A stretch of DNA of 64,000 nt, from positions 27,153-91,152 of IMG/VR virus record IMGVR_UViG_3300027851_000016; one strand, written 5' to 3'. A program made the translations under genes and the position numbers. Origin of the DNA: a virus. Positions 41,228 through 61,539 of this stretch are shown here, in pieces (position 1 is the stretch's first letter; the number at the start of each line of letters is the position of its first letter). The notes under the pieces were generated by a model, which saw only the letters and a list, made by a program, of their open reading frames with translations, did not search any database and was not told the DNA's origin.

Positions 41228-41359
41228 ATGCCTGGTAGGAAGAAGGATGTGCCTGAGCAGACTGACAACACGCCACGGCCAGAAGATGGGCCGCAGGATG
41301 ATGTCTCTCAGGACCCGAACTGGGTGAATCCTGATGCTGTGAAGGAGGATGATGCGTGA
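41228..41359 (+). CDS. Small acidic protein, 43 aa
   Basis: ATG 41228 is two bases after the previous stop. The product is hydrophilic and probably disordered (PGRKKDVPEQTDNTPRPEDG, then QDPNWVNPDAVKEDDA). The stop overlaps the endolysin start. Might be only a translational coupler; kept because start, frame and spacing fit the operon. Confidence 0.5.
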   Translation: MPGRKKDVPEQTDNTPRPEDGPQDDVSQDPNWVNPDAVKEDDA

Positions 41360-42417
41360 TGGGTGCTCCTACGAAGGCCCAGTTGCTCGCGCACACCGCC
41401 AAGCACATCGGAATCGCTGAGAACCCGCTCGGCAGCAACAAGACCGAGTTCGGGGTGCAGTGCGGCATGAACGGGGTGGCCTGGTGTGCCATCTTCCAGT
41501 CCTGTATGGCACTCGACCTTGGTGCTGTCACGGCACTGATGGGTGCGAAGCGGGCGTACACGCCGACCATGGGCAAGTGGTTCTACGACCGTGGTCAGTG
41601 GTTTGAGACCCCACGGGCTGGGGACTACGTGTTCTTCGCCTGGGGAACTGGCACAGGCCGCTGGAAGGGCATCCAGCACGTTGGCATCGTGGAGTCGGTC
41701 AACGCTGATGGCACGTTCTACACGATTGAGGGCAACGTGGACAGCAGGGTCAAGCGTATCAAGCGCTCGATGACCTACGTCGCTGGCTTCGGTCGCCCTG
41801 CGTACGCAGATGTGCCTGCACCGCTTCCGACCCCCGATACGACCCCGCTGCTCAAGAATGGCGATTCTGGACCTGCTGTGAAGCGGATGCAGGAGAGGCT
41901 CCTCGTGCACGGGTTCAAGCTCCCGCAGTTCGGTGCGGATGGCGACTTCGGTGACGAGACTGAGAAGGCTGTCATCGCCTTCCAGACGGCGCGCAAGCTC
42001 GAAGTCGATGGCATCTGTGGTGACCAGACCTGGGGCGCGCTGAACGCGGCTCCGCCCGTGGTTGCACCGCCTGCTCCTGCTCCTGCTCCCGTGGCCAATG
42101 CACGGGTCAGGGAGTTCCAGTACTGGTCTCGCAAGGCGGGTATGCGGGACTACACAGGGGCGCTGCTTGAGGTGGACGGTGTCTACGGTGAGCGTACCGC
42201 CTCTGTCACCAGGAAGCCTGCGGTGCTGGTTCGTGGCGCACGTGGGAACATGGTCGCGTTCATGCAGCGTTGCGTCGGTGCCAAGGACGACGGGTACTAT
42301 GGCCTGAAGCCGTACCGCGAGACGTACGACAAGGTCATTGCGTTCCAGAAGGCCCACAAGCTGGCGGCAGATGGTGTCGTTGGCGAGAACACCTGGAAGC
42401 GCCTGCTTCTCGGGTAG
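41359..42417 (+). CDS. Endolysin: CHAP-type peptidase with two peptidoglycan-binding domains
   Basis: The 352-residue protein has an N-terminal cysteine peptidase domain of CHAP/NlpC type: HIGIAENPLGSNKTEFGVQC, NGVAWCAIFQSCMA (catalytic Cys), GDYVFFAWGTGTG and IQHVGIVESVNADGTFYTIE (catalytic His), then a Pro/Ala linker and peptidoglycan-binding repeats (PAVKRMQERLLVHGFKLPQF with DGDFGDETEKAVIAFQTARK; MVAFMQRCVGAKDDGYYG with KVIAFQKAHKLAADGVVGEN). It cleaves cell wall peptides at lysis. Start could be ATG 41359 or GTG 41356; both follow GAAGGAGGATG. Confidence 0.9.
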   Translation: MGAPTKAQLLAHTAKHIGIAENPLGSNKTEFGVQCGMNGVAWCAIFQSCMALDLGAVTALMGAKRAYTPTMGKWFYDRGQWFETPRAGDYVFFAWGTGTGRWKGIQHVGIVESVNADGTFYTIEGNVDSRVKRIKRSMTYVAGFGRPAYADVPAPLPTPDTTPLLKNGDSGPAVKRMQERLLVHGFKLPQFGADGDFGDETEKAVIAFQTARKLEVDGICGDQTWGALNAAPPVVAPPAPAPAPVANARVREFQYWSRKAGMRDYTGALLEVDGVYGERTASVTRKPAVLVRGARGNMVAFMQRCVGAKDDGYYGLKPYRETYDKVIAFQKAHKLAADGVVGENTWKRLLLG

Positions 42418-45792: not shown

Positions 45793-45805
45793 CACTGTGC
45801 CGTAC

Positions 45806-45834
45806 TTGACATAGACAACGTTATACGTCACGAT
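45806..45834 (+). promoter_or_regulatory. Early-type promoter P2
   Basis: TTGACA 45806-45811, 17-bp spacer with GTTATACG, CACGAT 45829-45834, then GATAGTAAG. It is the most divergent of the five related promoters (CG instead of TG before the -10). It lies 55-80 bp before the GHKL-zincin gene and starts its unit. Confidence 0.75.
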
Positions 45835-45887
45835 GATAGTAAGGTACTTTCCAGACGCGAATGAGATGGGAAGAGGTGGGAACGTAG

Positions 45888-47540
45888 ATGCGAACTGTTG
45901 AAGTCAGGTCGAACATCGCAGGCGACATCATGAAGATTCGAAAGGGTGTCGTGTACAAGGATACGGCGACCGTTGTGGATGAGTTGCTGCAGAACTGTCA
46001 GCGTGCGGGTGCTACGTCGGTTGACGTGCGTATCATCGGTGACTCGATGACGGTCACAGACGATGGAGTCGGATGCCCCGACCCGCAGTCGTTGTTCGAG
46101 AAGAACACGTCCGCATGGGGGAACGAGGACGAGGCGTTCGGGGAGGGGTTCTTCAGTGTGTTCCTGTTGGCTGACAGGCTGGCTGTCCGCAGCTGCGATT
46201 GGTCGTTGACCATCGACGTGCTGGAGATGATTCGGACGCAGGACATGCGTGTCGAAGTCACTGAAGGGCTGGAACACGTGCAGGGGATGGTCGTCCAGGT
46301 CTCAGGCAAGAAGGTCGAGGACGATGTGTGGGAACTCCGTGAGGAGGTAGAACTGCTTGCGCGCACGATGCAGTTCGACACCGTTCTGAACGGCACGGAA
46401 GTAGAGCAGGTTGACCTGTTCCATCCGAATGAGCCTGGTGAGTTCCGCGTGGACACCAAGTTGTTGGAGGGTTGCATCGTACCGACCAAGGGGTACGGAA
46501 GTTACGTCCAGTGGTTCTACGAAGGCCGTCCCGTGCGCTCCGACTATGTGCAGGGCATCAGCGGCAACGTGGCCATCAAGAAGGGCTGCGCGACCCTGAA
46601 AGCACCTGACCGTAAGGAGTTCATCTACGACGCGAAGAAGACGGCACTTGCGGAGTCGCTGAAAGACGCGACACGCGGGGTGTTCCAGCAGTTCATCAAG
46701 ACAGCCACGGACGAGGAACTCGATGCCATGGCGGATGCAATCGACGCGTACCTGAAGGTCACGGACTACGCGGACCTGCTGAGTGTGTCGAAGTCCTTGT
46801 TCGAACGGGCGGAGGGGAGCGCCAAGGATGCAGGTGTGAAGTTTGATGCTGCGCTGCTTGGGCTGCTTGCGGGCATCGGGAAGATGGGCTTGGGAGACCG
46901 TGCTGAACGACCGAAGGGTCTGCTTGGTGAACTGGTCAGTAAGGTCAGGAAGCTCGCCTACGTGCCATCGAGGGACATCGAGAAGTATGAGAAGGCTGTG
47001 CGCAGGGCGGAGTACCTGGGATTCACGGTTGTGTACGCGCCGAACCAGCTGTATGTGAAGTCCATGCAGCACTTCGGGGTGCCGCTCGTCACGGCGCTTG
47101 AAGACCGTGTCGTAGCGCAGTACATCGCGGAGAAGGACGAGCCACGTAGCCAGAAGGAGCAGAGGTTCTTGTTCCTGATGCGTCGGGTCGAAGAGCACTT
47201 CGACATGCCAGCAGGCACGATTCGCTTGGCGAACTTGCGGCAGGAGGAGACCGACCAGGAGACTGGTGAGGTGCTGAAGCGAGACGACACGATTCTTGGG
47301 ATGACCGACTACCAGTTGAAGCGTGTGTACATCGACCGCAAGCAGGTCAAGTTCCCTGAGTATCGTGCGCAGGACCCCGAGTATCCGACAGTCACGGCAC
47401 ATGACTATCGCGTGCTGCTGCGCGTCTGGGGGACGCTGGTGCATGAGTTGGCGCACCTGCTGTACATGACGCGGGACAACACGATGGACCATGAGCAGGC
47501 GCAGCTTCGAATCGCCAACGAGTTGGATGGGTTGTTCTAG
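45888..47540 (+). CDS. GHKL ATPase fused to a HEXXH metallopeptidase-like domain
   Basis: This 550-residue protein has an N-terminal GHKL (Hsp90/MutL/MORC-type) ATPase: TVVDELLQNCQRAGATSVDV (N-box with Asn for Mg/ATP), TVTDDGVGCPDPQSLFEKNT (D-x-G-x-G box), and EGFFSVFLLADRLAVRS as the Gly-rich lid segment. The centre is helical. At the C-terminus LVHELAHLLYMTRDNTMDHE contains HELAH, a zincin-type zinc site, with His/Glu downstream as possible third ligand. I know of no characterised protein with this pairing. It could be an ATP-regulated protease or a chaperone with a degenerate peptidase. It leads its own P2 unit, so early expression is likely. Confidence 0.85.
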   Translation: MRTVEVRSNIAGDIMKIRKGVVYKDTATVVDELLQNCQRAGATSVDVRIIGDSMTVTDDGVGCPDPQSLFEKNTSAWGNEDEAFGEGFFSVFLLADRLAVRSCDWSLTIDVLEMIRTQDMRVEVTEGLEHVQGMVVQVSGKKVEDDVWELREEVELLARTMQFDTVLNGTEVEQVDLFHPNEPGEFRVDTKLLEGCIVPTKGYGSYVQWFYEGRPVRSDYVQGISGNVAIKKGCATLKAPDRKEFIYDAKKTALAESLKDATRGVFQQFIKTATDEELDAMADAIDAYLKVTDYADLLSVSKSLFERAEGSAKDAGVKFDAALLGLLAGIGKMGLGDRAERPKGLLGELVSKVRKLAYVPSRDIEKYEKAVRRAEYLGFTVVYAPNQLYVKSMQHFGVPLVTALEDRVVAQYIAEKDEPRSQKEQRFLFLMRRVEEHFDMPAGTIRLANLRQEETDQETGEVLKRDDTILGMTDYQLKRVYIDRKQVKFPEYRAQDPEYPTVTAHDYRVLLRVWGTLVHELAHLLYMTRDNTMDHEQAQLRIANELDGLF

Positions 47541-60927: not shown

Positions 60928-61539
60928 ATGGGCTTTGAAGAGGTAGTGTGCGGACTCATGCTGGGCGATGGTTCCCTGGAGAGGCGCGGGAACGCTCGAC
61001 TGAAAGTGCTTCGAAAGCAGGAGCATGCAGAGTACAACGTGTGGTTGAAAGCATTGCTGATAGATGACTTCGACTTCGGGCCAGACCAAGAAAGCCATAC
61101 GCAGGATGCACGTACGGACAAGGAGTACCACGGGTCCCGCATCAAGACACATGCAGATGAGCGCCTGACCGTGCTGCACACGTTGTGGTACGCGGACAAG
61201 AAGGTAGTGCCTGTTGCTTTTGTGGAGCAGTACTTCACGGCGTTGTCCCTGGCTATCTGGTACTTGGATGATGGCACGCTGACGAGGACGGGGAAGCAGG
61301 GTTACTACCGTACAGTTCTTGCAACGAACTGCTTCAGTCATGAAGAGGTCGCGTATCTGAGTGAGTTGCTTGCGCGGAGGTTTGGAATCAAAGCGCATGT
61401 AACACCGTGGCAAGGAAGATACGTACTGCGCATGTTTCAAGAAGAGAGCACGAAGTTATTAGACGTGGTCGGCTCTGTGTTGCCTGCACAAGGACTTGAG
61501 TGCATGCAGTACAAGCTGCAGATGATGGGAAGGTTGTGA
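60928..61539 (+). CDS. Free-standing LAGLIDADG homing endonuclease
   Basis: ATG 60928 follows GGGAGGTGAGAC. The 203-residue protein has two dodecapeptide motifs: VVCGLMLGDGSLERRG (near residue 6) and LSLAIWYLDDGTLTRTG (near residue 108), each with the catalytic acidic residue, and a basic connector typical of the intron-type LAGLIDADG_2 family. It would cut a long specific DNA site and promote its own spread. No intron or intein border is visible; flanking genes look intact, so it is inserted between genes and overlaps the next one by 4 bp. Confidence 0.88.
   Translation: MGFEEVVCGLMLGDGSLERRGNARLKVLRKQEHAEYNVWLKALLIDDFDFGPDQESHTQDARTDKEYHGSRIKTHADERLTVLHTLWYADKKVVPVAFVEQYFTALSLAIWYLDDGTLTRTGKQGYYRTVLATNCFSHEEVAYLSELLARRFGIKAHVTPWQGRYVLRMFQEESTKLLDVVGSVLPAQGLECMQYKLQMMGRL

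What the first reader, a model, noticed from the sequence alone, without database searches (positions are those of the whole stretch)
45888..47540. GHKL ATPase fused to a HEXXH peptidase-like domain
N-box DELLQNCQRAGA, DDGVGC and EGFFSVFLLADRL define a Hsp90/MutL/MORC-type ATPase; HELAHLLYMTRDNTMDHE at the C-terminus is a zincin-type zinc site. It is the first gene of its own promoter unit. An ATP-clamp coupled to proteolysis would be a new type of phage enzyme, possibly acting against host defence proteins or remodelling host complexes; MORC/Hsp90-type clamps are themselves common in defence systems.
Basis: partly seen in the sequence, partly recalled or inferred. Interest (0 to 1): 0.78.

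Follow-up and report, generated by a model that had tools for sequence, protein, structure and literature searches.

The report
Phage Hsp90-like ATPase with zincin tail
An early phage gene encodes a protein that joins an Hsp90/RIIA-type ATP-driven clamp to a small domain with all the marks of a zinc-protease site; relatives keep the clamp but have lost the zinc site in several lineages, so it may be an ATP-controlled protease (or protein binder) used to take over or disarm the host cell.

Summary
In detail: ORF 45888-47540 (550 aa) carries a GHKL ATPase (N-box E32/N36, DxGxG 58-62, GxG 85-87) and an HEXXHx11H motif (H519, E520, H523, H535) 32 residues from its C-terminus. It heads a transcription unit behind one of five copies of a promoter-like repeat. 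Twenty-one full-length relatives turned up in viral and MAG contigs; seven proteins in all keep HEXXHx11H. In those seven, only eight residues beyond 345 are invariant, and seven belong to the motif. AlphaFold gives GHKL + transducer + alpha/beta segment + helix/strands/HEXXH-helix/helix, the zincin core topology. The ATPase half is nearest in profile to an unnamed plasmid 'ATP-binding protein' family, then Hsp90, then phage RIIA; the C-terminal domain matches no solved structure significantly. Fifteen relatives lack the metal site; twelve of these, one clade, also have D58N and lost the second G1-box glycine. RIIA proteins are already described as GHKL plus variable C-terminus, so this is a new variant of a known kind, not a new kind. 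Best reading: an early, RIIA-like, ATP-driven clamp with a metallopeptidase tail acting on host (perhaps defence) proteins; proteolysis, ATP coupling and target are inferred.

The parts
45805..45850 (+). Promoter-like repeat copy: TTGACA at 45806-45811, 17-nt spacer, second hexamer position 45829-45834 (CACGAT)
   Evidence: One of five copies (42879, 45805, 52939, 55853, 59555); the related element before the L009 orthologue reads TTGACA-17-TATAAT/TAGAAT
45888..47540 (+). GHKL-zincin fusion ORF, 550 aa
   Evidence: 22-member full-length family
45888..46415 (+). GHKL ATPase domain, residues 1-176
   Evidence: hhalign to HtpG 98.3% over residues 2-176; Foldseek TRAP1 E 1.5e-14
45978..46013 (+). 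N-box DELLQNCQRAGA (E32 general base, N36 Mg ligand by analogy)
   Evidence: E32, N36 invariant in 22 of 22
46059..46076 (+). G1 box DDGVGC (D58, G60, G62)
   Evidence: D58 and G62 kept in 10 members; D58 is N and G62 is I/T/V/A in the 12-member AT-rich clade
46137..46178 (+). G2 box FGEGFFSVFLLADR; short lid precedes it
   Evidence: G85, G87 invariant in 22 of 22
46416..46787 (+). Transducer-like domain and helices, residues 177-300
   Evidence: AF2 secondary structure; hhalign to the plasmid family over residues 1-266 and to RIIA over 12-250
46596..46613 (+). LKAPDR loop, candidate catalytic arginine R242
   Evidence: L237, P240, D241, R242 invariant in 22 of 22; aligns with RIIA aPSRE
46788..46922 (+). 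Low-confidence linker, residues 301-345
   Evidence: pLDDT under 50 at 311-338
46923..47132 (+). Small alpha/beta segment, residues 346-415
   Evidence: AF2; kinship to the Hsp90 middle-domain small sandwich not established
47133..47537 (+). Zincin-like domain, residues 416-550: helix, 3-4 strands, HEXXH helix, last helix
   Evidence: AF2 pLDDT 91.7 for the C-terminal part alone
47442..47456 (+). HELAH motif, H519-H523
   Evidence: H519, E520, A522, H523 invariant in the 7 metal-site members
47490..47492 (+). H535, candidate third metal ligand
   Evidence: invariant with D530 and T532 in the 7 HEXXH members; lost in 14 of the 15 members without HEXXH, kept in L026

Best explanation
An early-expressed phage protein of RIIA/Hsp90-like architecture: ATP binding to the GHKL domain closes a clamp (probably a homodimer) through the transducer and its PDR arginine loop, and the C-terminal zincin domain, which holds one Zn2+ by H519, H523 and H535 with E520 as general base, cleaves a protein held by the clamp. 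The target is most likely a host protein, plausibly part of a defence or exclusion system, as for RIIA. Shown here: gene, both conserved site signatures, predicted fold, promoter-headed position, conservation. Inferred: zinc binding, proteolysis, dimerisation, ATP coupling, target.
For: GHKL boxes and PDR arginine conserved. Structure and profile place the ATPase half with Hsp90 and RIIA. In the seven HEXXH members, seven of the eight invariant residues beyond 345 are H519, E520, A522, H523, D530, T532, H535. Predicted element order of 416-550 equals the zincin core described in PMC5512222: helix, three strands, HEXXH helix, second helix with the third ligand. Early position between lysis and replication genes in the window and L009; downstream of lysis-type genes in L026 and L027. 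Diverse RII pairs overcome RexAB (PMC11879866).
Against: No known zincin is found by Foldseek with the C-terminal model (no hit with E below 0.001). Fifteen of 22 family members lack HEXXH, so proteolysis is not essential to the family. No RIIB-like partner was found in the PHROG scans of neighbouring genes. No model coordinates were available here, so metal-ligand distances were not measured.
Confidence: 0.42

Rival explanations
1. An RIIA/Hsp90-type clamp that binds and sequesters or remodels a host protein; the C-terminal domain is a client-binding module, and the metal site is structural or regulatory rather than proteolytic.
For: Fifteen of 22 full-length members lost or lack HEXXH while keeping the domain frame (R484 in 14 of the 15) and the GHKL residues E32, N36, G60, G85, G87; L026 keeps T532 and H535 without HEXXH.
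Against: The general-base position E520 and the whole HEXXHx11H are strictly kept in seven members whose identity to the query is mostly 24-53%, which suggests catalysis rather than a simple structural metal.
Confidence: 0.3
2. Self-processing: the zincin domain cleaves its own chain, for example in the 301-345 linker, to release the clamp, as proposed for metallopeptidase domains of polyvalent proteins.
For: Low-confidence linker at 311-338; precedent suggested in PMC5512222.
Against: No conserved cleavage motif seen in the linker, which is the least conserved part (33% identity to L009); relatives without HEXXH keep the same full-length architecture.
Confidence: 0.1
3. A phage Hsp90-like folding or assembly factor for virion or replication proteins, with the zincin as a processing step.
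For: Hsp90-like fold; gene adjacent to the replication module.
Against: Promoter unit next to replication rather than structural genes; no Hsp90-type C-terminal dimerisation domain; patchy occurrence (no full-length match in 50,697 phage records).
Confidence: 0.13

Closest known systems
Unnamed plasmid 'ATP-binding protein' family (e.g. WP_165989276.1, Caballeronia plasmid pSBC1_4)
   Same: GHKL plus transducer; hhalign 99.9%, E 2.8e-36 over residues 1-266; similar length, 530-580 aa
   Different: C-terminal half does not align convincingly and has no HEXXH; function unknown
Phage T4-type RIIA
   Same: N-terminal GHKL with the arginine loop (aPSRE versus aPDRk), hhalign 95.4% over residues 12-250; phage gene with a variable C-terminal domain (PMC7824862)
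   Different: No HEXXH in the six relatives of T4 RIIA checked by script; RIIA is followed by RIIB in the loci read through, this gene is not; sequence kinship only moderate
Hsp90 / HtpG / TRAP1
   Same: Best PDB match by fold (TRAP1 E 1.5e-14) and by profile (Hsp90 E 3.4e-9)
   Different: Shorter; zincin-like domain in place of the C-terminal dimerisation domain; small middle sandwich not shown to be homologous
Zincin-like metallopeptidases of phage and plasmid polyvalent proteins (PMC5512222) and SprT/WLM
   Same: Core topology and HEXXH; family members show only chance-level Pfam matches to SprT-like (0.058) and WLM (0.083)
   Different: Third ligand appears to be His in HEXXHx11H, not the Glu described for polyvalent zincins; no Foldseek match; partner is a GHKL clamp

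Membership tests
GHKL ATPase superfamily | N-box ExxxN, DxGxG, GxG motifs | tested here: met
   E32/N36, D58-G62, G85/G87
GHKL ATPase superfamily | Bergerat fold | tested here: met
   AF2 plus Foldseek against the PDB
GHKL ATPase superfamily | ATP binding and hydrolysis | not testable with these tools
   needs biochemistry
Hsp90 | N-domain sequence closer to Hsp90 than to MutL or GyrB | tested here: met
   top PDB profile hits are all Hsp90; MutL from 1.3e-3
Hsp90 | Complete middle domain with small sandwich | tested here: inconclusive
   full-length fold alignment is long, but the sequence test is not significant, 27 of 150 shuffles as good; isolated domain prob 0.23 at best for Hsp90
Hsp90 | C-terminal dimerisation domain | tested here: not met
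   replaced by the HEXXH domain; no hhalign match of the C-terminal part to HtpG
RIIA | GHKL plus transducer with variable C-terminus in a phage | tested here: met
   description from PMC7824862
RIIA | Direct sequence detection from T4 RIIA | tested here: inconclusive
   single T4 RIIA hhalign 52.6%; RIIA profile 95.4%
RIIA | Adjacent rIIB | tested here: not met
   no RIIB family among scanned neighbours in the window or L009; RIIB follows RIIA in L077 and L079-L082
RIIA | Suppression of Rex-type exclusion | not testable with these tools
   needs phage genetics
Zincin-like metallopeptidase | HEXXH in the first C-terminal helix | tested here: met
   519-523 inside helix 504-526, conserved in 7 members
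Zincin-like metallopeptidase | helix, three-stranded sheet, two helices | tested here: met
   element order on the model against PMC5512222
Zincin-like metallopeptidase | Third ligand in the second helix | tested here: inconclusive
   H535 conserved with HEXXH and in helix 533-549; distance not measured
Zincin-like metallopeptidase | Detectable fold match to known zincins | tested here: not met
   Foldseek PDB, none with E below 0.001
Zincin-like metallopeptidase | Zn binding, proteolysis | not testable with these tools
   needs biochemistry
MORC | Specific similarity to MORC ATPases | tested here: inconclusive
   MORC not among the 60 listed PDB profile hits; 159 passed the limit

The most novel reading that the evidence does not exclude
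A single-chain ATP-gated protease powered by a GHKL (Hsp90-type) clamp instead of an AAA+ ring: the phage uses it early to hold and cut a specific host defence protein, and derived lineages lost the protease, and in one clade apparently also ATP turnover, to become pure binders.
Probability: 0.25. Interest if true: 0.86.

Novelty: new variant of a known kind. Interest (0 to 1): 0.6.

Why it matters
Energy-dependent proteolysis is known from AAA+ machines; a GHKL clamp joined to a zincin would be a different design. It also gives a handle on RIIA-type proteins, whose biochemical action is still unclear decades after their discovery: here the variable C-terminus has a recognisable, mutable active site, and natural active and inactive versions exist for comparison.

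Tried and rejected
Single-sequence searches of viral contigs and phage records found no full-length relative; alignment-based scans did; two last scans added no new member. Homology of residues 352-418 to the Hsp90 middle-domain small sandwich looked good by eye but failed the profile test (27 of 150 column shuffles scored as well), so it is not claimed. A weak PDB sequence hit to a snake-venom metalloproteinase (E 0.85) was discarded as motif-driven. A Bacteroidota genome hit (G287, E 1.8e-4) has in-frame stops and lies among ordinary metabolic genes: discarded. A conserved partner gene was sought by all-against-all comparison of flanks: only L009 (and partly L027, L026) shares neighbours with the window, and none is shared family-wide. 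The Vibrio phage 'histidine kinase-like ATPase' hits match only residues 25-128 and the one read has no HEXXH. Literature: GHKL with HEXXH and metallopeptidase gave nothing; GHKL with zincin and phage gave only PMC7824862, which treats them as separate proteins. The library holds open-licence papers only, so a prior description elsewhere is not excluded.

Full report
What is there. The window is part of a 91,152-base virus record. Nucleotide-level evidence of selection is limited because synonymous sites are saturated against the nearest relative L009 (pS 0.89, pN 0.34), but the protein is conserved full length at about 50%.

Family. No PHROG or PADLOC family matches it, and the Pfam HATPase match is sub-threshold. 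Profile-guided scans of viral contigs and genome contigs gave 21 full-length relatives. The loci range from 29% to 58% GC, so the gene is spread over very different elements, yet no full-length match exists in 50,697 phage records. Seven proteins (query, L009, L011, L012, L027, L029, L076) carry HEXXHx11H, always 32-39 residues before the C-terminus.

The metal site is under constraint. Within the seven, the only invariant residues beyond 345 are R484, H519, E520, A522, H523, D530, T532 and H535: the motif is the most conserved thing in that half. Fifteen members lack HEXXH, and fourteen of them also lack H535 (L026 keeps it). On a tree of the ATPase half the trait needs three changes (bootstrap 2-4); two members without HEXXH, L010 and L026, sit inside a group whose other five members have it, so loss is the natural reading there, while the deeper forks are unresolved.

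The ATPase half. E32, N36, G60, G85, G87 and the L237/P240/D241/R242 loop are invariant in all 22. Ten members have the full DxGxG; the 12-member AT-rich clade has N at D58 and I, T, V or A at G62 together with lack of the metal site. The matching Asp contacts adenine in Hsp90 (own knowledge), so that clade may have lost nucleotide turnover. As the clade is one lineage, this joint loss is one event and only a hint that the two sites work together.

Structure. AlphaFold from nine family sequences gives pLDDT 84.6, and 91.7 for the C-terminal part alone. The whole model matches TRAP1/Hsp90 (E 1.5e-14); among named viral models the matches are mainly RIIA proteins. Residues 416-550 run helix 422-437, strands 445-483, HEXXH helix 504-526, last helix 533-549, the zincin core order given in PMC5512222. 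Foldseek with the C-terminal model finds no significant solved structure, so zincin membership rests on motif, topology and conservation. I had no coordinates and could not measure ligand distances.

Kinship. By profile comparison the ATPase half is closest to an unnamed plasmid family annotated 'ATP-binding protein' (E 2.8e-36, residues 1-266), then HtpG (1.6e-14, residues 2-176), then RIIA (1.7e-8, residues 12-250). [quoted passage not shown] diverse RIIA/RIIB pairs overcome RexAB (PMC11879866). Here no RIIB neighbour was found, whereas RIIB follows RIIA in most RIIA loci fetched for comparison.

Context. The gene lies between the lysis genes (endolysin at 41356-42417, with a run of small genes between) and the replication module (Arc-like regulator, two initiator-like proteins, DnaC-like loader, DnaB-like helicase) and follows a promoter-like repeat present five times in the right arm. 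L009 has the same gene order and its own TTGACA-17-TATAAT repeat before the gene. L026 also carries it directly downstream of an endolysin; L027 has an endolysin/holin-like stretch upstream and replication genes downstream. An early function, before or with replication, is therefore likely.

Mechanism. Most likely an ATP-driven clamp delivers or holds a host protein for a zinc peptidase; the RIIA precedent and early timing point to host takeover or counter-defence. Shown: sequence, conservation, predicted fold order, position. Inferred: zinc, cleavage, coupling, target. The strongest rival is a clamp-type binder in which the metal site is not proteolytic, since most sampled relatives dispense with it.

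Noticed in passing
window 42879, 45805, 52939, 55853, 59555: Five copies of a 46-nt promoter-like repeat (CTTGACA...GTTATAT...CACGAT) spaced through the right arm, probably the phage's early promoters; the related phage L009 has the same type with a near-consensus -10.
   Followed up: partly
L058-L064, L066, L067, L069, L071, L072, L074: AT-rich clade of about 608-aa relatives (several from records that look isolate-derived, up to 217 kb) with degenerate G1 box (D58N, G62 changed) and no metal site: candidate pseudo-enzymes.
   Followed up: partly
L003-L008 and other plasmid records: Large unnamed GHKL 'ATP-binding protein' family of 530-580 aa on big plasmids of Proteobacteria and Deinococcus, sharing the ATPase half with this phage protein; function unknown.
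   Followed up: partly
window 60928-61539: LAGLIDADG homing endonuclease (PHROG 11023, E 1e-18) among the right-arm genes.
   Followed up: no
L012:11829-13001: ORF starting MRRSYKFRIQPTKAQEINLQRLLDQCRFLYNCALEQ, which looks like a TnpB-type transposon protein, near a HEXXH member of the family.
   Followed up: no
L068:5989-6879: A family member whose ORF stops at 296 aa although the tblastn match continues to residue 565 of the query used: possibly a frameshifted or split gene.
   Followed up: no
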